The notes under the pieces are model-generated. The model was not told where the DNA came from. It worked only from the letters and a program-made list of their open reading frames with translations, and ran no database searches. A DNA stretch of 50,072 nucleotides, taken from positions 1 through 50,072 of the forward strand of contig NZ_FNZV01000018.1 in NCBI RefSeq assembly GCF_900109555.1, written 5' to 3'. Positions 1,309-25,678 of the stretch are shown piece by piece. The number at the start of each line of letters is the position of its first letter. Within the stretch, counting starts at the first letter, position 1. The stretch comes from Pacificibacter marinus. GTDB taxonomy: Bacteria; Pseudomonadota; Alphaproteobacteria; Rhodobacterales; Rhodobacteraceae. The translations under genes and the position numbers were made by a program.

Positions 1309-1318
1309 TGGTATACCA
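1309..1318. promoter_or_regulatory. GGTATACC operator, lysR/SDR divergent region
   Basis: TGGTATACCA is a 10-bp perfect palindrome centred at 1313.5 and embedded in AATGGTATACCAAA. It sits 14 bp before the LysR start, where bound protein would overlap the lysR promoter or transcript start. It is the weakest-extended of the six copies in the window. Confidence 0.7.
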
Positions 1319-1332
1319 AATTGGAGCACACT

Positions 1333-2331
1333 ATGGCGCGCTTGAACAGCCTAAACAGTTATGTTTTTTTTGAAGCAGTGGCACGACGCAAGTCGGTGAC
1401 GCGGGCCGCAGAAGAGTTGTTGGTGTCGCCTTCTGCGGTCAGCCAACAAGTGAAACTTTTGGAGCAGCAACTTGGGATAAAGCTGTTTCGGCGCGAGGGC
1501 AGAAGTTCAAGTTTGACGCTTGAAGGCGAGCAACTGTTTAAAGCCAGTTCTGCGGCCATTCGGATGCTGAAAGACGCGCAGCGGCATTTGGGCAAACAGC
1601 ATGAAGCGCGTCGTCTTAACTTGCGTGTGACACCAAGCTTTGGCGTGCGTTGGCTTGGGCCACGTTTGGCTGATTTCGTGCAAAGCCAGCCAACATGGGA
1701 TTTGCGGGTCGATGCGGCTCCTGATCCTACTGACTTTGATCGTGAGATCATGGATTTTGACATTCGCTACGGCACCGCTGCATGGGAAGGGTTTGAATGC
1801 CAACCCATTTTGTCTGACCAAGTTTTACCATTGTGTGCGCCTGCAATGCGTGATGATCTGCGGGCGCGTTTTGGCACAGATCCTGCGGCGATGCTGGGCG
1901 GTGCACGATTGATCGACAGTGCGCGAGCGCTGTGCCAATGGGATTTTTGGCTGCACAGAAATGGATTGTCTGTCGAGTCCAACACCAAATCGATCTTACT
2001 GGATCGCTCATCTCTTGCGCTGCAAATGGCCTGCGATGGGGCTGGGGTTGTGCTTGAATCTTTGGCCGTTGCAACGGGTGAGGTTGCGCGTGGTGATCTG
2101 GTGCCCTTGACCCCAACTTTGCCTGTTGTAGAATTTCCAGCCTATTGGGTGGTGTGCCCTGCGCGGCATATGAAACGCCGCGCTGTGGCATCGTTTTTGA
2201 CATGGATTTCTGAGCAAGCGGACCTTCACAAAATCACAACATCAAGCATCATGGAACAATATGATTTGAGTGTTGATGTGTTGCAATCACCTGCGGATGA
2301 GCTTGGCGGGCAGGGCGCAGGCACAACGTAG
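1333..2331 (+). CDS. LysR-family transcriptional regulator (GcvA-like)
   Basis: The protein has 332 residues. An N-terminal winged helix-turn-helix spans about residues 5-65 (FEAVARRKSVTRAAEELLVS, then PSAVSQQVKLLEQQLG, RR..R.LTLEG). A periplasmic-binding-like effector domain follows from about residue 90 (VTPSFGVRWLGPRLADF, DFDIRYG), typical of the GcvA subgroup. The start at 1333 has TTGGAG 7 nt upstream. The C-terminus is about 30 residues longer than usual for the family. It is divergent from an SDR gene, the classical arrangement for a LysR protein controlling its neighbour. A GGTATACC operator just upstream suggests it is itself controlled by the GntR regulator of the island. Its effector is unknown. 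Confidence 0.9.
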   Translation: MARLNSLNSYVFFEAVARRKSVTRAAEELLVSPSAVSQQVKLLEQQLGIKLFRREGRSSSLTLEGEQLFKASSAAIRMLKDAQRHLGKQHEARRLNLRVTPSFGVRWLGPRLADFVQSQPTWDLRVDAAPDPTDFDREIMDFDIRYGTAAWEGFECQPILSDQVLPLCAPAMRDDLRARFGTDPAAMLGGARLIDSARALCQWDFWLHRNGLSVESNTKSILLDRSSLALQMACDGAGVVLESLAVATGEVARGDLVPLTPTLPVVEFPAYWVVCPARHMKRRAVASFLTWISEQADLHKITTSSIMEQYDLSVDVLQSPADELGGQGAGTT

Positions 2332-2337
2332 CTTTGA

Positions 2338-2358
2338 TGCCGCAAGAGTGCTGCGGCA
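2338..2358. terminator. Short hairpin between convergent lysR and SDR genes
   Basis: TGCCGCA (2338-2344) and TGCGGCA (2352-2358) form a perfect 7-bp stem with a 7-nt loop in the 37-bp gap between two convergent stops. There is no T-run on either side, so it may be a weak bidirectional terminator or a transcript 3'-end protector. Confidence 0.4.
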
Positions 2359-2368
2359 CCACATTGGA

Positions 2369-5169: not shown

Positions 5170-5838
5170 TTAATCGTTAGGCGCGCTAACGTCTGCTTCA
5201 CTGGCATATTTATCGCGAATGTTTTCGATCAGCGCATCCAAGTGCTCGTTGATATGTTTATATGTCAGGTCAATATCGCGCGACTGCAGCGCAGCCATTA
5301 TTCCACCATGCTGACGTTTGACCCGATCAGAGCTTTCTTTGCGGCTGGCGGACAAATAGCGGGCACGCCACAGGCGACGTACAAACGCGCTGTGGGTTTC
5401 TGCCAGCACAGCATTGTGTGACGCAGCAGCGATGGCCATGTGGAATTCCATATCAAATTCAAAGAAATCAATCTTGCCAACCTTGCCTTGGACCAGAGCC
5501 ATATTGTCATGCATGGCTTGGAGTTTAGCGATATCTTTGTCCGTGGCGTGTTTGCAGGCTAATGCGCCACACCGCAGTTCCAGAGCCGTAAGAACCTCAA
5601 TAACATCTGAAATTTCTTCAAAGGATGGGTCGGCAACAATCGGGCTGCGCGATGGCCGTAAAAGCACAAGACCTTCTTTGGACAAAATCCGAATAGCTTC
5701 ACGCATAGGGGTGCGCGACACATCCAATTCTATGGCGTGATCGCGCTCTTTGATTTGCTGTCCGGGCGCAAGCGTGCCTTTTAAAATGTCACGGCGCAGC
5801 TTGTCGGCGATTTGTTCCGGCAGTGTTTTGTCAGTCAT
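5170..5838 (-). CDS. GntR-family (FCD) transcriptional repressor
   Basis: The protein has 222 residues. A winged helix domain spans about residues 5-70 (LRRDILKGTLAPGQQI, then SRTPMREAIRILSKEGL). An all-helical FCD effector domain spans about 80-210 and keeps the metal-binding acidic and His positions (FDMEFHMAI, QHGGIM, HINEHL). Such FCD proteins usually bind carboxylates or sugar acids. It is divergent from the TRAP transporter, and two GGTATACC palindromes lie in the shared promoter. In Escherichia coli the related UxuR/ExuR proteins recognise a motif with the same core, so this is the best candidate for controlling all six sites. The ATG at 5838 is chosen; a TTG three codons earlier is possible. 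Confidence 0.9.
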   Translation of the reverse strand: MTDKTLPEQIADKLRRDILKGTLAPGQQIKERDHAIELDVSRTPMREAIRILSKEGLVLLRPSRSPIVADPSFEEISDVIEVLTALELRCGALACKHATDKDIAKLQAMHDNMALVQGKVGKIDFFEFDMEFHMAIAAASHNAVLAETHSAFVRRLWRARYLSASRKESSDRVKRQHGGIMAALQSRDIDLTYKHINEHLDALIENIRDKYASEADVSAPND

Positions 5839-5930
5839 ATGTTTCAAGGCCTAGGTGTTTATGGTGGTTTTGCCAACTTCCTGTTGTTGCGCGATATGGG
5901 GCTGTTGACCAGACTAAAATAATATTTCCA

Positions 5931-5944
5931 TTTGGTATACCAAA
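5931..5944. promoter_or_regulatory. GGTATACC operator 1, gntR/dctP divergent region
   Basis: TTTGGTATACCAAA is a perfect 14-bp palindrome centred at 5937.5, 93 bp from the gntR start and 125 bp from dctP. It is one of two copies in this gap, consistent with autoregulation of gntR. Confidence 0.8.
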
Positions 5945-5986
5945 TTACTGTTGATTGTCGATAGCGACATCGCTAGCGTTATCGGC

Positions 5987-6000
5987 GATGGTATACCATC
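5987..6000. promoter_or_regulatory. GGTATACC operator 2, gntR/dctP divergent region
   Basis: GATGGTATACCATC is a perfect 14-bp palindrome centred at 5993.5, exactly 56 bp from operator 1. Between the two lies a smaller inverted repeat, TAGCG-ACAT-CGCTA (5962-5975). The pair could let two dimers cooperate or loop the promoter. Confidence 0.8.
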
Positions 6001-6068: not shown

Positions 6069-7082
6069 ATGAAACTTAAAACACTTTTGACTGCGACTGC
6101 TGCAGCTGCTCTGCTGGCCGGAGCTGCAAGTGCACAAACACATTTGCGCATTCAAACACACTACGCCACTGAGCACCCATCCGGTAAGCTCGCGGCACAG
6201 TTTGTTGACGATGTTCAAACAATGTCTGGTGGCGAGATCACCATTGAAATGTTCTATTCTTCATCTGTTGTTGCAACAGTTGAAACATTTGATGCTGCTG
6301 TAAACGGCATTCTTGATTGTGACATGACAGGTGGTGCGTACCAAACTGGTAAAAACCCAGCGTTCCAATTCGTTGGTGACATCATGGGAGGCTACGACAC
6401 ACCTTGGCAGCAGTTGTCTTGGCTCTACTACGGTGACGGTTATGAAGCGGCTCAAAAACTGTACAACGCAGAAGGCATGCAGCTTGTAGGCTGGTGGCTT
6501 TACGGCCAAGAATCATTCGCATCTTCACGCCCGATCGCGGGCCCAGAAGATTTGAAAGGTTGGAAATTCCGCTCACCTCCTGGCCTTGAAACAGAGATTT
6601 TCACCGAAATGGGCGCAACCCCAATCGTGATGGATTTCACTGAAATCTTTACAGCGCTTGAAACTGGCATCATCGACGGCGCTGATGCGTCTGGTCTTGC
6701 CAACAACGTTGGCCTTGGTCTGTACGATATCGTTAAGCACGCCAACTACCCTGGCTTCCACTCTATGCCTTCTGACCACCTTGCGTGTAACAAAGCCGTT
6801 TGGGATGGCATGAGCGAGCAAGAGCGCCGCATCATGGACACAGCGATGCAAAAGCTTTCAATGCACACAGCGCTTTCAAATGAAAAGAAAAACGCTGAAG
6901 CTGCTGCTATGCTGAAAACGCAAGGCGTGACTTTGTACGATTGGTCTGACGCTGACAAAGCTGATTTCCGTGCCGCAGCTCAACGCGCATGGGATAAGTT
7001 TGCTGAAGGTTCGCCCGAAGCTGTTGCTTTGGTTGCAAGCCACCGTTCTTACTTGAAACAACTCGGTTTGATTTCTGAGTAA
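6069..7082 (+). CDS. dctP: TRAP transporter substrate-binding protein DctP
   Basis: A periplasmic solute-binding protein of 337 residues. The signal peptide is clear (MKLKTLLTATAAAALLAGAA, cleavage after SA near residue 22). The mature protein has the DctP signatures: LKGWKFRSPPGLETEIF with the substrate-carboxylate Arg, then ALETGIIDGADASG. The WWLYGQ and PGFHSMPSDHLACN segments are reminiscent of the 2-oxoacid-binding branch (TakP-like), so the ligand may be a 2-oxo or hydroxy acid; this is inference. GGGAGG lies just upstream of the ATG. It is the first gene of dctPQM, behind two GGTATACC operators and divergent from gntR, so uptake is probably induced by the regulon's effector. Confidence 0.92.
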   Translation: MKLKTLLTATAAAALLAGAASAQTHLRIQTHYATEHPSGKLAAQFVDDVQTMSGGEITIEMFYSSSVVATVETFDAAVNGILDCDMTGGAYQTGKNPAFQFVGDIMGGYDTPWQQLSWLYYGDGYEAAQKLYNAEGMQLVGWWLYGQESFASSRPIAGPEDLKGWKFRSPPGLETEIFTEMGATPIVMDFTEIFTALETGIIDGADASGLANNVGLGLYDIVKHANYPGFHSMPSDHLACNKAVWDGMSEQERRIMDTAMQKLSMHTALSNEKKNAEAAAMLKTQGVTLYDWSDADKADFRAAAQRAWDKFAEGSPEAVALVASHRSYLKQLGLISE

Positions 7083-7115
7083 GATGCGTCTCGCTTAAGA
7101 GATCGTGGATATGGG

Positions 7116-7148
7116 GCGAGCCGGATTGAATTTTGGCTCGCCTTTGTA
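7116..7148 (+). terminator. dctP-dctQ intergenic stem-loop
   Basis: GGCGAGCC (7116-7123) pairs with GGCTCGCC (7136-7143) across a 12-nt loop, followed by TTTGTAT. Stem-loops here are common in transporter operons; they protect the 3' end of the abundant binding-protein transcript and let only part of transcription pass to the membrane genes. That role is inferred. Confidence 0.6.
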
Positions 7149-7189
7149 TCCTAAAATTAAAAAACTTATAACAGTGGGGTGTTAAGCAC

Positions 7190-7990
7190 ATGGAAAGCGA
7201 GAGCATATGGCTCGGTCCAATGCGCAAGCCTGTTCGTCTTGGGATGATCGGATTTGCGATAGCGGCGGCCATTACGTTTGCGTGGATGGCGATTCAAACT
7301 TTTGTCGCGACAGAGCCAACGACAATGTACGATATAGTAAGGCCTTCTGGCCATTTCTTGGCGCAGTTGGTTTTATTCACTTTCTCGGGCGCAATTTTAT
7401 TCACGTCGCTTTACATGTCAGACAGTGTCGGTGCGATTGAATCAAAACCGCAGGGGTTCTTTGATACCCTGTCTTTGGTCTGTTCACGTATCGCTATGAT
7501 CGGCATCGTCAGCATCGTTTTGGTGATGTTTTACGAAGTGGTATCGCGCTACGCCTTTGAGGCACCAACTCTTTGGGCCAACGAAATGTCGCTGTGGATT
7601 GCTGCGTTCTTATTCATGCTTGCAGGGCTCTACGCCATGCAACAACGAAGCCACATTCGCATTTATGTCATTTACGACATCATGCCACGTTGGTTTCAAA
7701 AGATGGCTGATATCATTTCAGTGTTCTTGATTTGGGTCTTCTCCTTTGCCCTTGTTTGGGGTGGATATAATGAAGCCCTTCTTAAATTCTCTCGGATGGA
7801 AACTTTTGGTACAGCGTGGGATCCGCCCATTCCTGCCACGATCAAGCCTGCCATTTTGATCATTATCTGTCTTGTTGCGATGCAAGCCTTGTCAAATCTG
7901 ATCGCAGATTGGCACAAAGCCCCCGCCGCACATGACGAGATTGATGAAACGGAAATTGAAAACATCCGCGCTACGCTGAGGGAAGATTAA
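7190..7990 (+). CDS. dctQ: TRAP transporter small permease DctQ (long form)
   Basis: An integral membrane protein of 266 residues, longer than the usual 160-200. It has two extra N-terminal spans (about 18-38 and 57-77) before the classical four-span DctQ domain (from about 95). The DctQ signature is present: VVSRYAFEAPTLWANEMSLW, then FLFMLAGLYAMQQRSHIRI. Long DctQ forms accompany the TakP-type TRAP systems. It ends one base before dctM, showing tight coupling, and is separated from dctP by a 107-bp gap containing a stem-loop. It forms the membrane complex with DctM that uses the sodium gradient to import the DctP ligand. Confidence 0.88.
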   Translation: MESESIWLGPMRKPVRLGMIGFAIAAAITFAWMAIQTFVATEPTTMYDIVRPSGHFLAQLVLFTFSGAILFTSLYMSDSVGAIESKPQGFFDTLSLVCSRIAMIGIVSIVLVMFYEVVSRYAFEAPTLWANEMSLWIAAFLFMLAGLYAMQQRSHIRIYVIYDIMPRWFQKMADIISVFLIWVFSFALVWGGYNEALLKFSRMETFGTAWDPPIPATIKPAILIIICLVAMQALSNLIADWHKAPAAHDEIDETEIENIRATLRED

Positions 7991-7991
7991 T

Positions 7992-9620
7992 ATGGAATTT
8001 TTGGAAGCCTTTGCGTGGATGAAGGTGGCTGACATTGGCACCATCTCTATCCTACTTTTGCTTGGCATGTTTGCGCTCTTGGCGCTTGGTATGCCGCTTG
8101 GGTTTGCATCAGCGTTTTTGGCGGTTGCCACGCTGGTCATGAAGTTCGGTCCTGAACTGATGTTTAGCGATTTTGGACGTGGTCCATTCAACGTTTTGGG
8201 GCAAGCCGTATATAGGCAGCTGACGAACTATGTTTTGATATCGGTACCGCTGTTTATCTTTATGGCATCCTTGCTGGAACGCTCAGGTATTGCGCGTGAC
8301 ATGTATTCATCACTCAATGTGTGGATGGCACGGACACGCGGCGGTATTGCCATCGTGACCTCTATCATGGCGGTCATCATGGCAGCTATGTCAGGGATTA
8401 TTGGCGGCGAAGTTGTGTTGCTTGGTCTGATTGCTCTGCCACAGATGTTGCGTCTTGGCTACAACCAAAACCTTGCGATCGGGACGATCTGTGCTTCAGG
8501 TTCTCTTGGCACCATGATCCCGCCGTCCATTGTTTTGATCATGTACGGTCTCATCACCGAAACTTCGATCAAAGCCTTGTTCACGGCGTCGTTCTTGCCT
8601 GGGTTTATGCTGGCCACGTTCTTTATTCTGTACATTGTCATTCGCACGCGGATGAACCCATCTTTGGCGCCTTTGCCAGAGCCTGATCCCACTGCTCCAC
8701 ACGGATCTGAGAAAAGCTTGATGTTCCTTGGCTTCATGGCAAAATTCGCCATGTGGGTTTCTGGCGTCATCTTTGCCCGTGCCGTATTCTTTACGCTAAT
8801 GGGGTCAAACAAAGTGACCGAAGGCGTTGACCCGATCTTCCTTGGGATGGTCAGTGATCTGCCATACATCGTTGGGGCGTTTGCTCTGTGCTTTGTTGTC
8901 GTGCGCTATATCGTTGGCCCAGAACGTACTGCAACAGGTTGGGAAATGGGCAAAGGTCTAATCGCGCCGATCGTTGTGATTGGTGTTGTGCTTGGGTCCA
9001 TCTATGGTGGCATTACAGGCATTACAGAAGCTGCTGGTATGGGCGTGATCGCTGTGTTTGTGATCAGTGCTATTCGCGGCGAGATGACCTTTGACATCGT
9101 TTACGACAGCTTGATGCGTACATTGAAATCGACAGGTACAATCATCTGGGTGACGATCGGTGCTGCCGCTTTGGCTGCCGCTTACACTCTCTCGGGTGGT
9201 CCGACGTATGTAGCGAACATGATCGTGGGGGCTGAATTGCCGACCATGGGCGTGATCCTTGTGATGATGCTGATCTTCCTTGTGATGGGCATGTTCATGG
9301 ACTGGATCGGGATCGTGCTTTTGATCATGCCGGTATTTTTGCCCATCGTTCTCAAATTGCCTATCGATGAGATCGGCGTCTTGGGTGGGCTAGAATCCAA
9401 ACATGTGGGTATCTGGTTCGGTGTGGTGTTCTGTATGAACATGCAAGTATCGTTCCTGTCTCCTCCCTTTGGTCCTGCAGCGTTCTATTTGAAATCTGTC
9501 GCACCTTCGCACATCACTTTGGTCGATATCTTCAAGGGCTTCTTGCCATTCATCTTGATCCAATTGTGCGCCTTGGGTGTCTTGCTTGTTTGGCCACCGA
9601 TTATTGCGGTGTTCTTGTAA
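7992..9620 (+). CDS. dctM: TRAP transporter large permease DctM
   Basis: A 542-residue polytopic membrane protein with about a dozen hydrophobic spans. DctM signatures are GMPLGFASAFLA near residue 35, GIIGGEVVLLGLIALPQML, SLGTMIPPSIVLIMYGLITE, and a C-terminal FLSPPFGPAAFYLK. It is longer than the common 425-residue form because of a cytoplasmic or extra-span insert around residues 235-310, as seen in TakP-like systems. It starts one base after the dctQ stop. It is the translocation channel of the TRAP importer. A strong terminator follows, so the operon ends here. Confidence 0.92.
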   Translation: MEFLEAFAWMKVADIGTISILLLLGMFALLALGMPLGFASAFLAVATLVMKFGPELMFSDFGRGPFNVLGQAVYRQLTNYVLISVPLFIFMASLLERSGIARDMYSSLNVWMARTRGGIAIVTSIMAVIMAAMSGIIGGEVVLLGLIALPQMLRLGYNQNLAIGTICASGSLGTMIPPSIVLIMYGLITETSIKALFTASFLPGFMLATFFILYIVIRTRMNPSLAPLPEPDPTAPHGSEKSLMFLGFMAKFAMWVSGVIFARAVFFTLMGSNKVTEGVDPIFLGMVSDLPYIVGAFALCFVVVRYIVGPERTATGWEMGKGLIAPIVVIGVVLGSIYGGITGITEAAGMGVIAVFVISAIRGEMTFDIVYDSLMRTLKSTGTIIWVTIGAAALAAAYTLSGGPTYVANMIVGAELPTMGVILVMMLIFLVMGMFMDWIGIVLLIMPVFLPIVLKLPIDEIGVLGGLESKHVGIWFGVVFCMNMQVSFLSPPFGPAAFYLKSVAPSHITLVDIFKGFLPFILIQLCALGVLLVWPPIIAVFL

Positions 9621-9717: not shown

Positions 9718-9767
9718 CTAGTCTTGTGCCACACTGAAAAGCTATCAATTCGCGGGTGAATTCCATA

Positions 9768-12325: not shown

Positions 12326-12349
12326 CCGCACCGGTTTAGGACTTCGCAT

Positions 12350-14042: not shown

Positions 14043-14054
14043 GTAAAGGTGCTC

Positions 14055-16454: not shown

Positions 16455-16490
16455 TATTTCCCTTAACCCATTAAAAATAAGGATAATCCT

Positions 16491-17263: not shown

Positions 17264-18187
17264 TTATTTCGCGCCTTTTTTGACGGCCTCGGCCAGTTCA
17301 AAGCCATTCATGCGTGCGACGTGATCTGCAAGATGCGGTACATAATCTGCCCCATGACCTGCGGCTTCCACAGCTGTGTAATAAGATTTCACGGCTTCAC
17401 CAACTGGGTTCAAAGCCCGCACATTTGATGCCATCGCTGAGGCGTAGTGAACGTCTTTTGAGGCATTGGTGATCGAGAATTTATGCACCTCCATGTCGCG
17501 CCCAACAGCGCAGGACATAAACGTATCAAAAAAGCCATTGGACAGACGCGACGCGCCAATCACATCGTTAATGACTTGCGGCGTTAGACCTGATTTGACG
17601 CCAACGCTCAGCGCTTCTGCATAAATCGCCGCATATCCCATGGATATGAAATTCATTATGAGTTTCATCTTATGGGCTGAGCCAACCGGCCCCACGTGAT
17701 TGATGATCCCCGCCCAGCATTCGATCAGCGGTAGAACTTTGGCAAAGGTTGCATCGTCCGCGCCGACCATCGCATCAAGCATCCCTGCTTCGGCTTCTTT
17801 TGGTGTACGCCCCAAAGGCGCGTCGACCATATGCATGCCAGCTGCTTCCAATTCTTGCGCCAGCGTGACTGTCGACGTGGGGTTTGCGGTGCTGGAATCC
17901 ACTACAATCAAGCCGGCTTTGCCACCTGCTAAAATGCCGTCATCGCCGCGAATGGTTGCTTCGACAGAATCACTGTTGGGCAAGCAAAGGTGAATGATAT
18001 CGCACAGAGCAGCCATTTCTTTGGGGCTGTCCACTTCTGTTGCGCCTTTTGCCACCAAGTCATCGATAGGCGTGCGGTTGCTGTTGCCTTTTATGTAAAG
18101 TGTGTAGCCGCCTTTGAGGATATTCGCGGCCATGCCGTGCCCCATTAAGCCGACGCCGATAAAGCCGATTATTGGTTTGGTTTTCAT
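17264..18187 (-). CDS. Beta-hydroxyacid dehydrogenase (3-hydroxyisobutyrate/tartronate semialdehyde reductase family)
   Basis: A 307-residue NAD(P)-dependent enzyme. The N-terminal Rossmann motif is GFIGVGLMGHGMAANI. The substrate loop, normally DAPVSGG in this family, reads VDAPLGRTPKEAEAG here. The catalytic Lys is in GSAHKMKLIMNF near residue 170. The altered loop suggests a substrate other than tartronate semialdehyde. The ATG at 18187 has GGGAGGA upstream. It is the second gene of a leftward pair, 32 bp behind an SDR, under the GGTATACC operator at 19048. It probably interconverts a hydroxy acid and its semialdehyde or keto form in the sugar-acid pathway. Confidence 0.87.
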   Translation of the reverse strand: MKTKPIIGFIGVGLMGHGMAANILKGGYTLYIKGNSNRTPIDDLVAKGATEVDSPKEMAALCDIIHLCLPNSDSVEATIRGDDGILAGGKAGLIVVDSSTANPTSTVTLAQELEAAGMHMVDAPLGRTPKEAEAGMLDAMVGADDATFAKVLPLIECWAGIINHVGPVGSAHKMKLIMNFISMGYAAIYAEALSVGVKSGLTPQVINDVIGASRLSNGFFDTFMSCAVGRDMEVHKFSITNASKDVHYASAMASNVRALNPVGEAVKSYYTAVEAAGHGADYVPHLADHVARMNGFELAEAVKKGAK

Positions 18188-18219
18188 TGTGTGTCCTCCC
18201 ACAGGATTTTGAGCAGTGA

Positions 18220-18981
18220 TTAAAGTGAGGCAGTGATGCCGCCGTCGACGAAAAGAGTGTGTCCGTTGACAAAATTCGATGCATTTGAGGCCAAGAACAC
18301 AGCCGCGCCCACCAGCTCTTCGATTTGTCCCCAGCGCCCTGCAGGGGTACGTTTTTCCAGCCAAGCGCTAAACTCAGGATCGGCAACAAGCGCTGCATTC
18401 AGCGGTGTGTCGAAATATCCTGGCGCGATGGCATTACAGTTTAATCCAAGCTGTGCCCAATCAGTCGCCATGCCTTTGGTCAGATTCGCGACAGCGCCTT
18501 TGGTCGCGGTGTAAGGCGCAATACCGGGGCGGGCGAGAGCGGTTTGAACTGACGCGATATTGATGATTTTACCAGTGCCACGTTTGATCATATGTTTGGC
18601 AACAGCTTGTCCAACGTTGAACACCGAAGTTACATTTGTGCGCATCAATTGGTCGAATTTATCAGCAGGAAATTCGTGCAAAGGCGCGCGAAATTGCATG
18701 CCGGCGTTGTTGATCAAAATATCAATCGGACCATGGTTTTTCTCAAATCCATCAATGGACTGCGCAACACCTGCGTGATCTGTAACATCAAAATTTAGGG
18801 TGTGTGCCGTGTATCCTTTGTTGCGCAGTTTTTGTGCCGCAGCCTCAAGAAGGTCTGTGCCGCGTGCGTTGAGAACGACATGCGCCCCCGCTTCGCACAG
18901 CCCGCGTGCTAAAGCGAATCCGATGCCCATAGAAGAGCCAGTGATGAGAGCTGTTTTGCCGCTAAGATCGAACAGTTTCAT
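18220..18981 (-). CDS. SDR-family dehydrogenase, gluconate 5-dehydrogenase-like
   Basis: An SDR of 253 residues beginning MKLFDLSGKTALITGSSMGI, the typical opening of gluconate 5-dehydrogenase (IdnO/Ga5DH) proteins. It has LINNAGMQFRAPL, the catalytic Ser in NIASVQTALARPG and the Tyr/Lys pair in YTATKGA. The C-terminal segment FVNGHTLFVDGGITASL also fits that group. Such enzymes interconvert an aldonate and its 5-keto form with NADP. It leads a two-gene leftward operon with the beta-hydroxyacid dehydrogenase. Its start lies 66 bp from an 18-bp GGTATACC palindrome shared with the rightward lysE-glcD operon. The actual sugar acid is not certain. Confidence 0.87.
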   Translation of the reverse strand: MKLFDLSGKTALITGSSMGIGFALARGLCEAGAHVVLNARGTDLLEAAAQKLRNKGYTAHTLNFDVTDHAGVAQSIDGFEKNHGPIDILINNAGMQFRAPLHEFPADKFDQLMRTNVTSVFNVGQAVAKHMIKRGTGKIINIASVQTALARPGIAPYTATKGAVANLTKGMATDWAQLGLNCNAIAPGYFDTPLNAALVADPEFSAWLEKRTPAGRWGQIEELVGAAVFLASNASNFVNGHTLFVDGGITASL

Positions 18982-19047: not shown

Positions 19048-19065
19048 AAAATGGTATACCATTTT
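19048..19065. promoter_or_regulatory. GGTATACC operator, SDR/lysE divergent region
   Basis: AAAATGGTATACCATTTT is a perfect 18-bp palindrome centred at 19056.5 and the most extended of the six copies. It can control the leftward SDR pair and the rightward lysE-glcD-FAH-denD operon together. Confidence 0.85.
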
Positions 19066-19121: not shown

Positions 19122-19220
19122 ATGAAAACACAAAACACAAAGACCGCTCTGGCGCAGCGGCAAGATCAACACGTCATTAATGCCTCTAGAGCACATCGCA
19201 CGGGTCGCGCGGTATGTTGA
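19122..19220 (+). CDS. Possible 32-residue leader peptide overlapping lysE
   Basis: The ATG at 19122 is preceded by GGGGGGAT at ideal distance, better than the ribosome-binding site of lysE itself. The frame reads MKTQNTKTALAQRQDQHVIN then ASRAHRTGRAVC and ends in a TGA that overlaps the lysE start by 7 bases. It is basic, rich in Gln, Arg and Thr, with no membrane segment and no family I know. The arrangement suggests a translated leader whose ribosomes reinitiate at lysE. It could also be only a remnant of a longer lysE N-terminus; the lysE frame upstream is closed by a TAG at 19187. Confidence 0.4.
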   Translation: MKTQNTKTALAQRQDQHVINASRAHRTGRAVC

Positions 19221-19813
19221 TATTTATGGCGGCTGTGTTTTTTCTTATCGTGACCCCAGGGCCTGGTGTTTTGTCGACGGCTGGGGTCGGCGCGGCCTAT
19301 GGTTTTAAAGCGGGATTGCGTTATGTCTTGGGTCTATTCATAGGTACCAACCTCGTGGCACTTACGGCGATAACGGGTATCGCAGCGGTTGTTTTGTCTG
19401 TGCCTGTGGTGCGAACCGTTTTGATGGTGCTGTCGGTCGCGTATCTGACCTATCTGGCGGCAAAGATCGCCTTTGCAGGCTCGAAAATGGCGTTTATCGA
19501 AGCGCGCTCTGCCCCAGGTATCAAGCAAGGACTGCTACTTCAGGCGATTAATCCTAAAGCCTATAGTGTGAACATCGCCTTGTTTTCAGGCTTTGCATTT
19601 GCCCCTGAAAACCTGATCGCTGAAGCAGGACTGAAGCTAGTTATCATCGCGCTGATTTGGGCCCCGATTCATCTAGGTTGGCTTTATTTTGGTGTGGCGG
19701 TGCATCGATTGGATTTGGCTGAACGCACACAGCGCAAAATCAACTACGCCATGGCATTGTCCATGATGTTGGTGGTTGGGCTTGCGGTTTTTTCGATGAT
19801 CAGGGGCGTTTAA
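19214..19813 (+). CDS. LysE-family small-molecule exporter
   Basis: A 199-residue membrane protein of the LysE/RhtB family with about six hydrophobic spans. The signature FLIVTPGPGVLS follows directly after the start, then GFKAGLRYVLGLFIGTNL. The conserved INPKAYSVNIALFSGF segment is near residue 110. It is slightly short at the N-terminus compared with relatives that carry a few residues before the first span. The ATG at 19214 has no good ribosome-binding site and overlaps a 32-codon upstream frame, so translation may be coupled. Exporters of this family release amino acids or related hydrophilic metabolites. In this catabolic operon it may relieve accumulation of an intermediate; that is inference. 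Confidence 0.88.
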   Translation: MLIFMAAVFFLIVTPGPGVLSTAGVGAAYGFKAGLRYVLGLFIGTNLVALTAITGIAAVVLSVPVVRTVLMVLSVAYLTYLAAKIAFAGSKMAFIEARSAPGIKQGLLLQAINPKAYSVNIALFSGFAFAPENLIAEAGLKLVIIALIWAPIHLGWLYFGVAVHRLDLAERTQRKINYAMALSMMLVVGLAVFSMIRGV

Positions 19814-19850
19814 TGCCTGCGATATCGTTTCCCATTTCAAGGAATATCAC

Positions 19851-21236
19851 ATGACAATTCAATCAGCTTTGAAAGCGCTCGAGCGGCTTTTGGGGGACCG
19901 TTTGGTGACGTCTGATGCAGTGCTTGCGCAGCACGGCGAGAATGAAACCTATTTTACAAACACACCTCCTGATGCGGTCATTTTCCCTGAAAATACCGAA
20001 GACGTGTCGCAAATCGTTAAGCTCTGTAACATGCACGCTTGCCCCATCGTGGCTTATGGCGCGGGCACGTCGCTTGAGGCGCAACATTTGGCCGTGCAAG
20101 GCGGTGTCGTGCTTGATTTTTCCAATATGAACAGCGTGCTTGAAGTGCGTGACGAAGACCTGACCGCTGTGGTGCAACCCGGACTGACACGTGAAGATCT
20201 GAACACCTATTTGCGCGATACGGGTTTGTTTTTCTCGGTTGATCCGGGGGCGAATGCCTCGATGGGGGGCATGGCTGCCACGCGCGCATCGGGTACAACA
20301 GCAGTGCGATATGGCACGATGAGCGACAATGTTTTAGCGTTTGAGGTCGTGATGGCGGATGGCACGATCATCCGCACCGGCACAGGCGCGCGCAAAACGG
20401 CGTCGGGTTATGATCTCACGCACCTGCTGATCGGGTCCGAGGGCACGCTTGGTATTATCACCGAGCTTACAGTCAAACTACACGGAATTCCCGAAGCGGT
20501 GTCCGCCGCGACCTGTCGATTTGACAGCGTCGAGGATGCTGTGAATACAGTTATTTTGACCATCCAATCGGGTATTCCAATGGCGCGTATCGAGCTGTTG
20601 GATGATGTGATGGTGCGTGGGTTTAATACCTATTCCAAAAGCGATCTGCCGGAAAAACCACATCTGTTTGTCGAATTTCACGGCTCACCCACTGCTGTGG
20701 CTGAACAAGCCGAAAATTTTGGCGATATCGCTGGGGAATTTTCGGCTGAAGACTTTGCATGGACAACAAAACTTGAAGAACGCACAGCGCTTTGGGCCAT
20801 GCGTCACAAGGCACATTACGCGTCTTGGTCGCTCAATCCGGGCAAGAAATTTTTGGCCACAGATGTGTGTGTTCCAATCTCGCGATTGGCCGAAGCTGTT
20901 GTCAAAGCCAAAGAAGACAGCGTTCGTTTGGGGCTGACATCGACCATTGTTGGTCATGTCGGCGACGGAAACTTTCACTGCGGTGTAGGCGTGGACACAG
21001 ACAACCCTGATGAAATCGCGCGGGTCGAAGAGTTCACCGATAACCTATGCAAATTGGCGCTGCGCCTTGGTGGCACGGTCACCGGCGAGCACGGCATTGG
21101 CGTAGGAAAAATAAAATTCATGGATGCCGAACATGGCGCGGCTGTCCCCTTTATGCGTGCGGTGAAAGCCGCGCTTGATCCCAACAATATTTTGAACCCA
21201 GGCAAGGTCATTCCTACAGCCACGGACAAGAGGTAA
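19851..21236 (+). CDS. FAD-linked 2-hydroxyacid dehydrogenase (GlcD/D-lactate dehydrogenase family)
   Basis: A 461-residue flavoprotein of the vanillyl-alcohol-oxidase type. The FAD-binding domain (about residues 35-215) carries YGAGTSLEAQHLA and DPGANASMGGMAATRASGTT. The C-terminal domain has GHVGDGNFH near residue 370 and GEHGIGVGK near 413, matching D-lactate or D-2-hydroxyglutarate dehydrogenases. It oxidises a D-2-hydroxy acid and passes electrons to the respiratory chain or another acceptor. AAGGA precedes the ATG. It lies between lysE and a FAH-family gene in one operon. Its substrate is probably a hydroxy acid from the pathway, such as D-lactate, glycolate or a deoxy-aldonate; the sequence cannot tell which. 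Confidence 0.88.
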   Translation: MTIQSALKALERLLGDRLVTSDAVLAQHGENETYFTNTPPDAVIFPENTEDVSQIVKLCNMHACPIVAYGAGTSLEAQHLAVQGGVVLDFSNMNSVLEVRDEDLTAVVQPGLTREDLNTYLRDTGLFFSVDPGANASMGGMAATRASGTTAVRYGTMSDNVLAFEVVMADGTIIRTGTGARKTASGYDLTHLLIGSEGTLGIITELTVKLHGIPEAVSAATCRFDSVEDAVNTVILTIQSGIPMARIELLDDVMVRGFNTYSKSDLPEKPHLFVEFHGSPTAVAEQAENFGDIAGEFSAEDFAWTTKLEERTALWAMRHKAHYASWSLNPGKKFLATDVCVPISRLAEAVVKAKEDSVRLGLTSTIVGHVGDGNFHCGVGVDTDNPDEIARVEEFTDNLCKLALRLGGTVTGEHGIGVGKIKFMDAEHGAAVPFMRAVKAALDPNNILNPGKVIPTATDKR

Positions 21237-21240
21237 CACA

Positions 21241-22392
21241 ATGATTCCACATTCAAACCCTAACCCAGACGCCACGTTTGTTGGCCGTGTCTGGCGCCCA
21301 AATGTTGGACCCTGTCTTGTGGTCTTGCGCGCAGATCAGGTGATTGACATCACGTCAAAAGACGCGCCCACCATGCGCGATTTGCTAGAACGTGATGATG
21401 TCGTCAACTTTGTGCGAGCCGCGCAAGGCGACGTGATTGGAACCTTGGCTGATGTGACGCGCGGCTCGGTTGAGGGCGCGGGCGAAGATGTGTTGCATTT
21501 CTTGCCACCGACCGATTTGCAAGCGATCAAAGCCTCTGGCGTGACGTTCGCGGAAAGTATGGTTGAACGGGTGATCGAAGAGCAGGCTGCAGGCAACGCA
21601 GACCATGCCGAAGCGATCCGTAAAAAGGTCAAATCCAGCATTGGCGATAGTCTGTCTGGGATCGTTCCTGGATCTGAAAAAGCGATGGAGGTCAAAGCGA
21701 TCCTGCAAGCAGAAGGCCTGTGGTCGCAGTATTTGGAAGTGGGCATTGGCCCCGATGCCGAAGTGTTCACCAAGTCGCAGCCTATGGGCGCGGTGGGGTG
21801 GGGCGCTAGCGTGGGTCTGCATCCGATGTCGAGCTGGAACAACCCCGAACCCGAAGTGGTTTTGGCCGTGACGTCTGCGGGCAAAGTTGTTGGCGCGACC
21901 TTGGGCAATGACGTGAACTTGCGCGATGTGGAAGGGCGCTCTGCGTTGCTGTTGGGCAAAGCCAAAGACAACAACGCATCGTGTTCGATCGGGCCTTTCG
22001 TACGCTTGTTCGATGATAGCTTTGGCATGGAAGATGTGCAAAACGCTGAGCTGGATCTCAAGATCACAGGCGACGACGGCTTTGTGTTGGATGGTCACTC
22101 GTTCATGAATAAAATCAGTCGCACTCCGCAAAGCATCGTCGATCAAACCGTTGGTCGCCATCATCAATACCCTGATGGGTTCTTCTTGTTCCTCGGTACG
22201 CTGTTTGCACCGGTGCAAGACCGCGACGTCAAAGGGCAAGGTTTCACGCACAAACTGGGCGATGTTGTCACGATCTCTGAGCCAAATTTGGGTGCGTTGC
22301 AAAATACGGTGCGCCTATCAACCCAGTGCCCTCCTTGGACGTTTGGCACGGCCGCACTCATGCGCAATCTTGCAGCCCGTGGGCTGATATAA
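21241..22392 (+). CDS. FAH-family 2-keto-3-deoxy-sugar-acid dehydratase (XylX-like)
   Basis: A 383-residue member of the fumarylacetoacetate hydrolase superfamily, longer than the common 280-residue hydrolases. The C-terminal core has NNPEPEVVLAV with metal-binding Glu residues near 200, followed by GATLGNDVNLRDVEGRSALL. This length and core match the branch containing Caulobacter XylX, which dehydrates 2-keto-3-deoxy-xylonate to 2-oxoglutarate semialdehyde. The IlvD-type dehydratase at 14055 would supply such a substrate. It starts 4 bp after the glcD stop and precedes denD by 21 bp, so it belongs to the same operon. No 2-oxoglutarate semialdehyde dehydrogenase was seen in the window, so that step would have to be elsewhere. 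Confidence 0.82.
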   Translation: MIPHSNPNPDATFVGRVWRPNVGPCLVVLRADQVIDITSKDAPTMRDLLERDDVVNFVRAAQGDVIGTLADVTRGSVEGAGEDVLHFLPPTDLQAIKASGVTFAESMVERVIEEQAAGNADHAEAIRKKVKSSIGDSLSGIVPGSEKAMEVKAILQAEGLWSQYLEVGIGPDAEVFTKSQPMGAVGWGASVGLHPMSSWNNPEPEVVLAVTSAGKVVGATLGNDVNLRDVEGRSALLLGKAKDNNASCSIGPFVRLFDDSFGMEDVQNAELDLKITGDDGFVLDGHSFMNKISRTPQSIVDQTVGRHHQYPDGFFLFLGTLFAPVQDRDVKGQGFTHKLGDVVTISEPNLGALQNTVRLSTQCPPWTFGTAALMRNLAARGLI

Positions 22393-22413
22393 TTCAATGA
22401 AGGAAACGACGTT

Positions 22414-23379
22414 ATGAAAGTTCTTATTCTAGGCGGTGGTGGCTTTGTTGGTCAAAAACTGGCGCGCAGTTTGGTGGCTCGTGGCACCTTGCGCGGGGAA
22501 AACATCAAAACGCTTGTGTTGGCAGATGTTGTCGATCCTGCGGTTGTTGAAGCGCCCTTTGGCGTTGAGGTGGCGACATGCGACATTTCTGATCCAGACC
22601 AAGTCAATCAACTGATTTCCGAAGACGTCGATGTCATCTACCTTTTGGCCGCTATCGTGTCAGGCCAAGCCGAAGAAGATCTCGATTTGGGGATGCGCAT
22701 TAATATGATGGGCACGCTCAATGTGTTGGAGCGTTGCCGCGCTTTGCCTCATGCGCCTGTCGTGGTTTTCACCTCGTCTGTTGCGTGTTTTGGTGGCGAT
22801 TTGCCTGACGTGATCACCGATCAAACCTTGCTCAATCCGCAGACGTCTTATGGCGCGCAAAAGGCGATTGGCGAGCTGTTGATCAACGATTATTCCCGTC
22901 GTGGTTTGATTGATGGACGCGGCTTTCGGTTGCCAACGATTTCTGTGCGCCCCGGTAAACCAAATCGCGCGGCTTCTGGGTTTATGTCGTCGATCTTTCG
23001 CGAGCCGCTTAATGGCATGACATCCAACTGCCCTGTAAGCCGTGATTTCCCGCATTTTTACCTGTCACCGCGCAAGTGTATTGAAAACCTTATTAAAGGT
23101 GCTGAAATCTCTGCTGAAGACTTTGGTCAAAATCGTTGCATGACCATGCCGGGACAAAATTTGACCATTGGGGCAATGATCGATGCGATGACGGCTGTCG
23201 CAGGGCCAGAGCCAGAAAAATTGATCACATATGAGACGGATGAGGATGTGTGGGCGATTGCCAAAGGCTGGCAGTTCACTTTCAAAACTGACAAAGCGCG
23301 CGCACTGGGTTTGACCGCTGATGAAAGCTTTGAAGAGAACATTCGGTACTATATCGAAGATGATCAACCAAACGCTTGA
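22414..23379 (+). CDS. denD: D-erythronate dehydrogenase
   Basis: A 321-residue protein of the NAD-dependent epimerase/dehydratase (extended SDR) fold. It has ILGGGGFVGQKLARSL at the N-terminus, the catalytic Ser-Tyr-Lys set in FTSSVACFGG and SYGAQKAIGELL, and then the subgroup hallmark RLPTISVRPGKPNRAASGFM. This matches the DenD group, which oxidises D-erythronate to 2-oxo-D-erythronate with NAD. AAGGAAA lies upstream of the ATG. It is the last gene before a strong terminator and 3.3 kb from ltnD-otnKCI, which would take its product on to dihydroxyacetone phosphate. Confidence 0.88.
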   Translation: MKVLILGGGGFVGQKLARSLVARGTLRGENIKTLVLADVVDPAVVEAPFGVEVATCDISDPDQVNQLISEDVDVIYLLAAIVSGQAEEDLDLGMRINMMGTLNVLERCRALPHAPVVVFTSSVACFGGDLPDVITDQTLLNPQTSYGAQKAIGELLINDYSRRGLIDGRGFRLPTISVRPGKPNRAASGFMSSIFREPLNGMTSNCPVSRDFPHFYLSPRKCIENLIKGAEISAEDFGQNRCMTMPGQNLTIGAMIDAMTAVAGPEPEKLITYETDEDVWAIAKGWQFTFKTDKARALGLTADESFEENIRYYIEDDQPNA

Positions 23380-23427: not shown

Positions 23428-23453
23428 GTTTTTTAATGTCGGTAACAGCTAGA

Positions 23454-24401
23454 TTAATTGACTGGGGTCAACAAATCTTTGCCTGCCAAATGAGCTGACA
23501 CATTGGCAAGTTGCAACTCGGCCATAGCGCGGCGCGTTTCAACAGTACCAGAGCCTTGGTGTGGCTGTAGAATAGCCGTTTTCAAGTCGTAAAACCGTTC
23601 ATCAATTTTTGGTTCGTCGTTGAATACATCCAGTCCCGCACCTGCGATGGTGCCATCGGCCAACGCTTTGATCAAAGCGTCTTCGTCAATGGTTGAGCCG
23701 CGTGAAATGTTGATCACAACACCGCGTGGGCCAAGGGCTGCTATGGCTTCTGCTGAGACGTATTTTTCAGTTTCTTTGCCGCCGACAAGCGCGATGACAA
23801 GGTAATCAACTGCAGTGGCCAAAGACACGACATCTGCGTGATAGGTCCAGTTTGGCGTCTCTTTTTCTGATCGTGCGTGGTAGTGAATGTCCATCTTAAA
23901 GGCAGCCAAACGGTCCGCAATGTCGCGCCCGATCCGGCCAAGCCCAACGATCCCAACAGACGATCCAGACATTTTGCGGTTGAGTGGCAGATTTTCTCCA
24001 CCAGCCCATGTGCCAGAGCGCACCCATGCATCGCCCGCCACCATATTGCGCGATTGAGCAATCATCATGCCGACCGCGATATCTGCCACATCGTCGTTGA
24101 GAACGTCTGGCGTGTTGGTGACTTTGATGCCTCGCGCGGAAGCGTCCGTGACATTGATTGCATCATAGCCAACACCGTAGTTTGCGATCAGGCCAAGGTT
24201 GGGCAGCAAGTCCATTGTCGCGGCGTTCAGTGGAGTGTGCCCTTTGAACGCAATGGCTTTGATCGTCGCGCGTGTGGCTTCAGACAGTTCGGAAACAGCA
24301 TCAGGCGCGGCAGAAAAACTGGCGCTGTGCGCGGCTTCAAGGCGTGCGCGCTCCTCGCTAGAAAAGGCGGCGCCGAGGATGAGAAGAGGTGTATTGGTCA
24401 T
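23454..24401 (-). CDS. D-isomer-specific 2-hydroxyacid dehydrogenase (hydroxypyruvate/glyoxylate reductase type)
   Basis: A 315-residue enzyme. It has the NAD-binding motif VGIVGLGRIGRDIADRL, the catalytic Arg in NISRGSTIDEDAL, the Glu in DVFNDEPKID and the His in LQPHQGSGT, all in the expected order. It reduces 2-oxo acids such as hydroxypyruvate or glyoxylate, or oxidises the matching D-hydroxy acid. The ATG at 24401 has AAAGGGC 7 nt upstream. It lies 20 bp behind the aminotransferase, so the pair forms a leftward operon controlled from the promoter that carries the GGTATACC operator at 25665. Together they could link an amino acid, its keto acid and a hydroxy acid. Confidence 0.87.
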   Translation of the reverse strand: MTNTPLLILGAAFSSEERARLEAAHSASFSAAPDAVSELSEATRATIKAIAFKGHTPLNAATMDLLPNLGLIANYGVGYDAINVTDASARGIKVTNTPDVLNDDVADIAVGMMIAQSRNMVAGDAWVRSGTWAGGENLPLNRKMSGSSVGIVGLGRIGRDIADRLAAFKMDIHYHARSEKETPNWTYHADVVSLATAVDYLVIALVGGKETEKYVSAEAIAALGPRGVVINISRGSTIDEDALIKALADGTIAGAGLDVFNDEPKIDERFYDLKTAILQPHQGSGTVETRRAMAELQLANVSAHLAGKDLLTPVN

Positions 24402-24421
24402 TTGGAATGCCCTTTCAAAAA

Positions 24422-25594
24422 TTACAGAATGCCGCGAATGCGGCGGATGGCTTCGATGATGTTTGTTGTCGAATTTGCATATGAAAAGCGCAAATAGCCC
24501 TCCCCCCATGCCCCAAATGATGTGCCCGCGACAGTTGCCACGCCCGCGTCATTTAGAAATTTGTCTTGTGCTTCGGTGGCCGTCATACCTGTGCCTTCGA
24601 TATTGGCAAAGGCGTAAAATGCCCCAGCAGGATCGGGACAGCGCACGCCGGGCAAGCTGTTAAGTTCGCGGCCTATAACCGTACGGCGCGCATCGAATTG
24701 GGCGACCATATCATGAACTGCATCTTGTGGTCCGTTCAATGCTTCAATGGCGGCAAATTGTGTTGCGGCATTTACACACGAATGATCGTTGATGCACAGG
24801 CGCGTGACATGATCCACCAAGCTGTCAGGCCACACAGCATAGCCGATACGCCAACCTGTCATCGCGTATGTTTTCGACCAACCATCAAGCATGATCAGTC
24901 GATCTCTGATCTCAGGATATTGCAATAAGCTCACGTGTTCACGACCACCGTAAAGCATGTTTGAATAAATTTCATCCGACAAAAGCGCCACATGCGGGTG
25001 CTCTAAAAGCCCAGCAACAAGTTTGTCGATTTCGGTTTTCGGCGTCACGCCCCCAGTGGGGTTGGCCGGGCTGTTGATGATGATAAGACGTGTTTTATCA
25101 GTGATTTGCGCCAACACAGCTTCGGCGGAAAAGGCAAAGTCATTTTCCTCTTTCAAGGCAATAGGCACAGGCGTTGCGCCAGTATAGTTGATCATGCTTT
25201 CATAAATAGGGAACCCTGGGTTGGGGTACATAATTTCCACATCAGGCTGCCCAAACATTGTGATCGCGAAAAACATTGTCGGCTTGCCGCCAGGAACGAC
25301 AACAACGTTGTCTGGGTTCACTTCGACATCGTGACGGCGGTGCAAATCCGCACTCACGGCTTGGCGCAGTTGCGGCAAGCCGTTTGCAGGCGTGTAGCCG
25401 TGATGTCCGTCACGCAGCGCTTTGATGCCTGCTTCTACAATGTTTTCGGGCGTTTTAAAATCTGGCTGACCGATCCCAAGATTGATAATATCCTGCCCTT
25501 GCGCTGCCAAGGCTTGCGCCCGTGCCAGCACCATAAAAGCGGATTCAGTACCAAGTCGTGACAGGCTGTCGGCAAGCTGTAGCTGAGCCTTCAT
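24422..25594 (-). CDS. Class I/II PLP-dependent aminotransferase
   Basis: A 390-residue aminotransferase with INLGIGQPDFKTP near the N-terminus, HHGYTPANGLPQLRQAV, the NSPANPTGG loop, the LLSDEIYSNM Asp that holds the pyridine nitrogen, and the PLP-lysine in DGWSKTYAMTGWRIGY near residue 240. The final Arg for the substrate carboxylate is in GYLRFSYA. TAGGAG lies 6 nt from the ATG. It leads a leftward pair with a D-2-hydroxyacid dehydrogenase and is divergent from ltnD, sharing a GGTATACC operator. Resemblance is to aspartate-type aminotransferases; the amino donor and acceptor are unknown. Confidence 0.88.
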   Translation of the reverse strand: MKAQLQLADSLSRLGTESAFMVLARAQALAAQGQDIINLGIGQPDFKTPENIVEAGIKALRDGHHGYTPANGLPQLRQAVSADLHRRHDVEVNPDNVVVVPGGKPTMFFAITMFGQPDVEIMYPNPGFPIYESMINYTGATPVPIALKEENDFAFSAEAVLAQITDKTRLIIINSPANPTGGVTPKTEIDKLVAGLLEHPHVALLSDEIYSNMLYGGREHVSLLQYPEIRDRLIMLDGWSKTYAMTGWRIGYAVWPDSLVDHVTRLCINDHSCVNAATQFAAIEALNGPQDAVHDMVAQFDARRTVIGRELNSLPGVRCPDPAGAFYAFANIEGTGMTATEAQDKFLNDAGVATVAGTSFGAWGEGYLRFSYANSTTNIIEAIRRIRGIL

Positions 25595-25664
25595 GTGGCT
25601 TCTCCTATGATCGCATCACGGTGTCGACGCGAATTTGTATTTCAACGTTGCCACGAATATGCAT

Positions 25665-25678
25665 TTTGGTATACCAAA
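25665..25678. promoter_or_regulatory. GGTATACC operator, aminotransferase/ltnD divergent region
   Basis: TTTGGTATACCAAA is a perfect 14-bp palindrome centred at 25671.5, 70 bp from the aminotransferase start and 35 bp from the earlier ltnD start. A further inverted repeat, TTCGGA-TGG-TCCGAA (25692-25706), lies just downstream and could be a second site or a leader hairpin. Confidence 0.8.

What the first reader, a model, noticed from the sequence alone, without database searches (positions are those of the whole stretch)
1309..25678. Six GGTATACC palindromes define one sugar-acid regulon
Perfect palindromes centred on GGTATACC occur at 1309-1318, 5931-5944, 5987-6000, 15910-15925, 19048-19065 and 25665-25678. 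All are intergenic and all lie in divergent promoters; I found none inside genes and none in the glycogen or fucose-like regions. They join at least ten transcription units over 25 kb: SDR/lysR, gntR/dctPQM, ilvD-like/secreted protein-rraA, SDR-hydroxyacid dehydrogenase/lysE-glcD-FAH-denD, and aminotransferase pair/ltnD-otnKCI. The core equals that of the UxuR/ExuR motif of Escherichia coli, also bound by GntR/FCD proteins, so the local GntR is the likely owner.
Basis: partly seen in the sequence, partly recalled or inferred. Interest (0 to 1): 0.75.

Follow-up and report, generated by a model that had tools for sequence, protein, structure and literature searches.

The report
One repressor, six sugar-acid operator sites
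Six identical palindromes in this bacterium are very probably the binding sites of one neighbouring repressor that switches a large set of sugar-acid uptake and breakdown genes together; it is a new regulon of a familiar type, conserved in related marine bacteria.

Summary
GGTATACC occurs six times in the window against 0.12 expected; 6 of the genome's 16 copies lie in this 50-kb contig. All six sit in five divergent promoters.

The owner is very probably the local GntR/FCD protein. Its 10-mer TGGTATACCA lies within 400 bp upstream of gntR in 67 of 80 related loci. It precedes 66 of 66 dctP and 15 of 16 ilvD genes but 0 of 63 dctM genes. In 149 family genomes it co-occurs with this GntR (Fisher P 1e-12). 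None of the 28 other FCD genes of the genome has GGTATACC within 1.5 kb.

The UxuR/ExuR label is not supported: E. coli UxuR and ExuR group with another protein of this genome, and the predicted fold is closest to VanR-type regulators.

New here: operators about 56 bp apart enclose a conserved presumed dctP promoter, and the motif also stands beside D-apionate-type genes on another contig.

Binding, repression, looping and inducer are inferred. Verdict: a well-supported, apparently undescribed regulon of a known kind.

The parts
5170..5838 (-). GntR/FCD transcription regulator, presumed owner of the sites (ORF open to 5847 with TTG; start at 5838 inferred from the alignment)
   Evidence: Pfam GntR + FCD; 80 related loci; invariant E34, R45, T46, R49 and metal-type residues D132, H136, H180, with H202 at 99%
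5930..5945 (.). Operator O1, TTTGGTATACCAAA type, gntR side
5951..5956 (+). Presumed -35 of dctP (TTGATT inside conserved TTGATTGTCGA, 5951-5961)
   Evidence: conserved between operator pairs; not listed by the plain consensus scan
5974..5979 (+). Presumed -10 of dctP (TAGCGT), 17 bp after the -35
   Evidence: function inferred
5987..6000 (.). Operator O2, GATGGTATACCATC type, dctP side, 56 bp from O1, over the presumed start of transcription
1309..1318 (.). Operator between SDR (minus) and lysR (plus), ending 14 bp before the lysR ATG at 1333
15910..15925 (.). Operator between ilvD-type dehydratase (start 15836, minus) and small secreted protein/rraA (start 15975, plus)
   Evidence: 15 of 16 relatives' ilvD genes have it
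19048..19065 (.). Operator between SDR (start 18981, minus) and lysE/glcD/FAH/denD (plus)
   Evidence: 3 of 5 relatives' SDR4 genes
25665..25678 (.). Operator between aminotransferase (start 25594, minus) and ltnD-otnKCI (start about 25741, plus)
   Evidence: 5 of 8 relatives' aminotransferase genes, 1 of 6 ltnD
6069..9620 (+). TRAP transporter dctP-dctQ-dctM
   Evidence: Pfam
9756..13249 (+). Galactarate dehydratase/altronate hydrolase-like, Gfo/Idh/MocA oxidoreductase, EamA transporter; presumed continuation of the dct operon
   Evidence: Pfam
13308..15836 (-). ilvD/edd-type aldonate dehydratase and SDR
   Evidence: Pfam, NCBIfam PRK13017 over cut-off
15975..17189 (+). Small presumed secreted protein and RraA-like protein
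17264..18981 (-). 3-hydroxyisobutyrate dehydrogenase-like and gluconate 5-dehydrogenase-like SDR
19214..23379 (+). LysE, GlcD-like FAD oxidase, FAH-family hydrolase, D-erythronate dehydrogenase DenD
   Evidence: DenD over NCBIfam cut-off
23454..25594 (-). D-2-hydroxyacid dehydrogenase and aminotransferase class I/II
25741..29337 (+). L-threonate dehydrogenase, 3-oxo-tetronate kinase, decarboxylase, isomerase (ltnD-otnK-otnC-otnI)
   Evidence: NCBIfam: ltnD, otnK, otnC over cut-off, otnI just below
445..2331 (.). Divergent SDR (445-1239, minus) and LysR regulator (1333-2331, plus)

Best explanation
The six palindromes are operators of the GntR/FCD protein encoded at 5170-5838. With no inducer a dimer sits on each TGGTATACCA and shuts the divergent promoters. 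At gntR/dctP two dimers, about 56 bp apart, enclose the dctP promoter: O1 lies just upstream of the -35 and O2 over the start of transcription, so they block it together, perhaps as a tetramer holding a small loop, and O1 also throttles gntR. A sugar acid or a breakdown product binds the metal-containing FCD domain, the protein lets go, and the TRAP importer is made together with the enzymes for C4, C5/C6 and, in this genome, branched D-apionate-type acids. Shown by computation: the sites, their promoter-specific conservation, their link to this GntR, the spacing and the conserved promoter-like element. Inferred: binding, repression rather than activation, looping, and the inducer.
For: Chance excluded. 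In 80 related loci (the best 80 of 119 relatives) TGGTATACCA occurs 182 times; none of the 29 other palindromes made from the same half-site letters exceeds 8. It is upstream of dctP in 66 of 66, gntR 66 of 80, ilvD 15 of 16, aminotransferase 5 of 8, but of interior operon genes in 0 of 63 (dctM), 0 of 63 (dctQ), 0 of 55 (uxaA-like), 0 of 48 (eamA). 149 family genomes, one per genus: both 21, GntR only 6, motif only 11, neither 111 (P 1e-12). 1 of 29 FCD genes of the genome has GGTATACC within 1.5 kb. Of 64 neighbouring site pairs under 250 bp, 53 are 54-57 bp apart; of 56 pairs 50-62 bp apart, 49 carry TTGATTGTCGA with at most 2 mismatches (40 exact) and 49 a TAnnnT 17-18 bp on, against 4 of 4000 random windows for the first element. 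Contact residues named for the VanR-type repressor Atu1419 (passages of PMC7797058), Glu34, Arg45, Thr46, Arg49, are invariant in 79 orthologues.
Against: No binding, expression or growth data. 11 of 149 genomes have the motif without this GntR, and in the 8 of those that I fetched it is not beside genes of this set, so other regulators probably use the same word. 14 of 80 relatives lack the site within 350 bp of gntR, 7 of them Paracoccus, where a pair stands before ilvD in most. Several targets are patchy: TktN 4 of 20, DenD 2 of 10, FAH 2 of 9, LtnD 1 of 6, LysR 1 of 15. The contact residues are shared with UxuR and ExuR, so they do not prove the specificity. The promoter has 5 mismatches to the sigma-70 hexamers and the plain scan did not list it. 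Tetramer and loop rest on a distant relative.
Confidence: 0.85

Rival explanations
1. Another FCD regulator of the genome (28 others exist) or several together bind the sites; the neighbouring gntR is merely one more target.
For: 29 FCD genes. Three paralogues have similar words in their own upstream stretch: own_L027 TGGTATACAA, own_L017 and own_L037 TTGTATACAA. Some genomes hold the motif without this GntR.
Against: None of the 28 has GGTATACC within 1.5 kb; motif and this GntR co-occur strongly and are neighbours in 67 of 80 loci.
Confidence: 0.08
2. The local LysR protein (1333-2331) is the owner.
For: One site stands directly before lysR.
Against: A LysR relative of at least 45% identity lies in only 15 counted cases of the 80 loci and only 1 has the site upstream, while TGGTATACCA is in 77 of 80 loci. 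A perfect 10-14 bp palindrome with invariant core is the form of FCD sites (PMC4494728, section 10).
Confidence: 0.02
3. The protein is this lineage's UxuR/ExuR, a hexuronate repressor.
For: FCD family; 33% identity to UxuR over 181 residues; TGGT-NN-ACCA with a 2-nt centre is the UxuR form (PMC4494728, section 10).
Against: UxuR and ExuR group with own_L019, support 100/93, with a long-branch warning; own paralogues score as high as UxuR. Relatives of E. coli UxuA/UxuB in the 80 loci: 3 each, none with the site. In Rhodobacter sphaeroides the hexuronate genes answer to another GntR, RSP_0489, whose listed ChIP motifs are not TGGTATACCA (passages of PMC4344238).
Confidence: 0.03
4. The sites are activator sites rather than operators.
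For: O1 lies upstream of the presumed -35, where activators can sit.
Against: O2 covers the presumed start, and the site before lysR ends 14 bp before its ATG, places that suit a block; described FCD relatives such as Atu1419 repress (abstract passage of PMC7797058).
Confidence: 0.08

Closest known systems
Atu1419 of Agrobacterium fabrum (VanR-type FCD repressor, PDB 6z74 and others; PMC7797058, abstract and passages seen)
   Same: FCD repressor; 10-bp palindrome with GTATAC centre (ATGTATACAT there, TGGTATACCA here); several palindromes per region; contact residues Glu34, Arg45, Thr46, Arg49 at the same numbers; predicted fold matches
   Different: Other outer bases in the operator, hydroxycinnamate genes, effector methylenetetrahydrofolate; sites 190 and 109 bp apart there, about 56 bp here; 24% identity in the fold match
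UxuR/ExuR of Escherichia coli
   Same: GntR/FCD regulators of sugar-acid genes; UxuR sites have the TGGT-NN-ACCA form with a 2-nt centre
   Different: Different branch of the tree; E. coli uxu-region words have CA, TA or TG in the centre, not AT; different genes
RSP_0489 of Rhodobacter sphaeroides (PMC4344238, passages seen)
   Same: GntR-family sugar-acid repressor in the same bacterial order
   Different: Controls uxuA, uxaC, uxuB; different motif. Its sequence was not compared here
FadR-subfamily divergons with common double sites (Suvorova 2015, PMC4494728, sections 10, 14 and 17 read)
   Same: Regulator gene divergent from its target operon, two sites at near-constant distance
   Different: That survey is general; this group is not named in the passages seen, and its supplement was not open to me

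Membership tests
GntR family, FCD subfamily | N-terminal GntR HTH and C-terminal FCD domain | tested here: met
   PF00392 E 4e-15, PF07729 E 6e-26
GntR family, FCD subfamily | FCD metal-type residues Asp and three His (rule recalled) | tested here: met
   D132, H136, H180 in all of 79 orthologues, H202 in 99%
GntR family, FCD subfamily | AT-rich palindrome with TKGT/ACMA boxes, 2 or 3 nt apart | tested here: met
   TGGT-AT-ACCA against PMC4494728 section 10
VanR-type FCD regulator | Fold closer to VanR-type than FadR-type structures | tested here: met
   Predicted model: AlkR (VanR) TM 0.84/0.91, McbR 0.78/0.82, FadR about 0.51
VanR-type FCD regulator | Six helices in the FCD domain (rule recalled) | tested here: inconclusive
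   Seven helices listed, two of them separated by one residue
VanR-type FCD regulator | Tetramer bridging two palindromes, as in Atu1419 | not testable with these tools
   Only monomer modelled
UxuR/ExuR | Grouping with E. coli UxuR and ExuR | tested here: not met
   They join own_L019 (100/93); orthologue clade 99/100 without them; long-branch warning noted
UxuR/ExuR | Hexuronate genes (uxuA, uxuB, uxaC) among the targets | tested here: not met
   In 80 loci UxuA 0 of 3 and UxuB 0 of 3 with the site; genome-wide hexuronate genes not searched
Double-site divergon with common sites | Near-constant distance between two sites in a regulator divergon | tested here: met
   53 of 64 neighbouring pairs under 250 bp at 54-57 bp

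The most novel reading that the evidence does not exclude
One repressor acts as a general sugar-acid master switch in many Rhodobacterales: it gathers C4 tetronate, C5/C6 aldonate and branched apionate-type pathways, in varying sets, by carrying the same 10-bp operator from promoter to promoter, senses an intermediate common to them rather than any one substrate, and holds the importer promoter inside a loop between two operators of distinct flank type (AT-flanked O1, GATC-flanked O2).
Probability: 0.3. Interest if true: 0.6.

Novelty: new member of a known kind. Interest (0 to 1): 0.42.

Why it matters
It gives a ready test set (an invariant 10-mer, 182 sites, 80 loci) for predicting which enzymes act in sugar-acid catabolism of roseobacter-type bacteria, where many such genes lack a substrate. 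It assigns an operator to a GntR group for which I found none in print, and the two-operator promoter with near-constant spacing is a clean model for repression by FCD proteins. It also corrects a tempting but wrong transfer of the name UxuR.

Tried and rejected
Degenerate sites: with 2 mismatches the genome shows no excess (88 against control 90), so no weak sites are claimed. LysR and UxuR as owners: rejected. Plain sigma-70 scan: listed weak words near the sites but not the conserved dctP promoter. First paralogue scan missed frames and was replaced. RNA families: none in the window. The apionate link: of 9 genomes with the PGDH_C protein among 27 searched, 4 show a link (own contig C24 and G027 with a site upstream, G045 inside the dct operon, G070 about 5 kb from gntR) and 5 do not; in the 80 named loci 0 of 5 kinase and 0 of 6 PGDH_C genes have the site upstream. 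Of 20 regions fetched around isolated sites in family genomes, 5 show the site beside a gene of this set at 45% identity or more and 15 do not. Spacings 23, 34, 56 and 111 bp look like multiples of about 11 bp, but 18, 19, 60 and 173 also occur; I make no claim. Solved relatives of DctP, IlvD, FAH and UxaA-like proteins did not settle the substrate.

Rows dropped before counts: the search for related loci kept the best 80 of 119; L133 and the window's duplicate copy left out of the tree and L133 out of the residue table; one search counted only genes at 45% identity or more, half covered, start 350 bp or more from an end; one search used 38 of the 80 related proteins.
Full report
Observation. 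Five of the six stated palindrome lengths are exact, one is 1 bp short on each side. The genome holds 16 copies, six of them in this contig, P 3e-8. Genome-wide the 8-mer is not frequent; the reversed control has 45 copies. The longer word WWTGGTATACCAWW has 8 exact copies, 5 in the window, control 0. With two mismatches there is no excess (88 against 90), so the signal is a small set of near-perfect sites. A matrix from 182 sites in relatives scores the six 20.1-26.6 and nothing else in the window above 5.8.

Surroundings. All six lie in five divergent promoters: SDR/lysR, gntR/dctPQM (two sites), ilvD/secreted protein-rraA, SDR/lysE-glcD-FAH-denD, aminotransferase/ltnD-otnKCI. NCBIfam names DenD, LtnD, OtnK and OtnC over their cut-offs, so C4 tetronate breakdown is firm; the IlvD-type dehydratase is closest to solved galactonate and other sugar-acid dehydratases. 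The TRAP importer's substrate is open.

Owner. I took the best 80 of 119 loci encoding relatives of the GntR. TGGTATACCA is in 77 of 80 loci, 182 times in all, while none of the other 29 palindromes from the same letters exceeds 8. It lies within 400 bp upstream of gntR in 67 of 80, as a pair in 51. It is upstream of 66 of 66 dctP and 15 of 16 ilvD genes and absent before interior operon genes: dctM 0 of 63, dctQ 0 of 63, uxaA-like 0 of 55, eamA 0 of 48. Targets beyond this core are patchy: aminotransferase 5 of 8, SDR4 3 of 5, TktN 4 of 20, DenD 2 of 10, FAH 2 of 9, LtnD 1 of 6, LysR 1 of 15. In 149 family genomes both motif and GntR occur in 21, GntR only in 6, motif only in 11, neither in 111 (P 1e-12; the genomes are relatives, so the P value is generous). 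Two of the six GntR-only genomes do have TGGTATACCA in the GntR region, with other flanks. Of the 11 motif-only genomes I fetched 8, and none showed the site beside genes of this set, so other proteins probably use the word there. In the own genome only 1 of 29 FCD genes has GGTATACC within 1.5 kb, the local one; three others have related words such as TGGTATACAA.

Not UxuR. E. coli UxuR and ExuR join the own-genome protein own_L019 with support 100/93, and the orthologue clade of the window protein stands apart (99/100); the tree warns of long branches around own_L019. UxuR-like words in the E. coli uxu region have other centres. The predicted fold (pLDDT 89.9) is nearest VanR-type FCD proteins: AlkR TM 0.84/0.91, against about 0.51 for FadR. 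The residues that contact DNA in Atu1419 (Glu34, Arg45, Thr46, Arg49; passages of PMC7797058) are invariant in 79 orthologues, but UxuR and ExuR share them too. R. sphaeroides has a separate GntR, RSP_0489, for hexuronates, with another motif (passages of PMC4344238).

Operator pair and promoter. Of 64 neighbouring pairs closer than 250 bp, 53 are 54-57 bp apart; in the window it is 56. The two members differ: the dctP-side site is mostly GATGGTATACCATC, the gntR-side one TTTTGGTATACCAAA. Between them lies a conserved stretch. Read towards dctP, 7-8 bp after O1 comes TTGATTGTCGA (40 of 56 pairs exact, 49 with up to 2 mismatches; 4 of 4000 random windows), then TAnnnT 17-18 bp on in 49 of 56, then O2, mostly 9-11 bp further. 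The seven misses are five Paracoccus pairs before ilvD and L073 and L098. In the own genome TTGATTGTCGA occurs only five times. I read it as the dctP promoter held between two operators; another protein's site is not excluded, and the plain promoter scan did not list it.

Wider regulon. Outside the window, TGGTATACCA stands before an EamA transporter gene (C18), an SDR gene (C22), an isocitrate dehydrogenase-like gene (C22) and in the C24 divergon between an OiaK-like kinase and a PGDH_C protein. The kinase and the neighbouring ApnL-like lactonase match NCBIfam D-apionate models strongly but below cut-off; the name ApnO for the PGDH_C protein is recalled, not from a call. In G045 the same two proteins follow dctPQM in the gntR region. 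The link is seen in 4 of 9 genomes with that protein.

Mechanism. Best reading: repression by dimers at single operators, joint block or small loop at dctP, release by a sugar acid or intermediate. The Atu1419 precedent, a tetramer that can loop DNA between palindromes 190 bp apart, makes a loop possible, no more. PMC4494728 (sections 10, 14, 17) describes FadR-subfamily divergons with two sites at constant distance as co-operative; this case fits.

Novelty. Searches of the paper library for GGTATACC or TGGTATACCA with GntR or operator, for sugar-acid GntR regulons and for Rhodobacterales regulons gave no account of this regulon; for I saw 20 of 30 titles. Supplements, subscription papers and RegPrecise were out of reach. 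I call it a new member of a known kind.

Noticed in passing
G000 contig C24, L048 8622-13802: D-apionate-type cluster (OiaK-like kinase, PGDH_C protein, ApnL-like lactonase, Gfo/Idh) with one TGGTATACCA in its divergent promoter; families match below their cut-offs.
   Followed up: partly
window 5951-5961: TTGATTGTCGA is conserved between the operator pair in many species, beyond what a -35 needs; it might be a site of a second protein.
   Followed up: partly
L075, L082, L084, L085, L103 (Paracoccus), upstream of ilvD: The operator pair, 54 bp apart, stands before ilvD instead of dctP, with a different conserved GC-rich stretch between.
   Followed up: no
L114, L124 and L074: Orthologues with the motif in two Oceanospirillaceae bins (a different class) and in a record labelled Enemella evansiae (Actinomycetota); transfer, mis-binning or mislabelling.
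   Followed up: no
window 3141-5113: A transketolase split into two ORFs next to an SDR and gntR; in 4 of 20 counted relatives it has the operator upstream.
   Followed up: partly
G000 contig C22, 43286 (L047 9990): Overlapping repeat CTTGGTATACCAAGGTATAC upstream of an isocitrate dehydrogenase-like gene.
   Followed up: no
L147 (G100): In a genome without this GntR, the motif lies about 1.4 kb from a gene 34% identical to E. coli UxuR; another FCD protein may use the same word.
   Followed up: no
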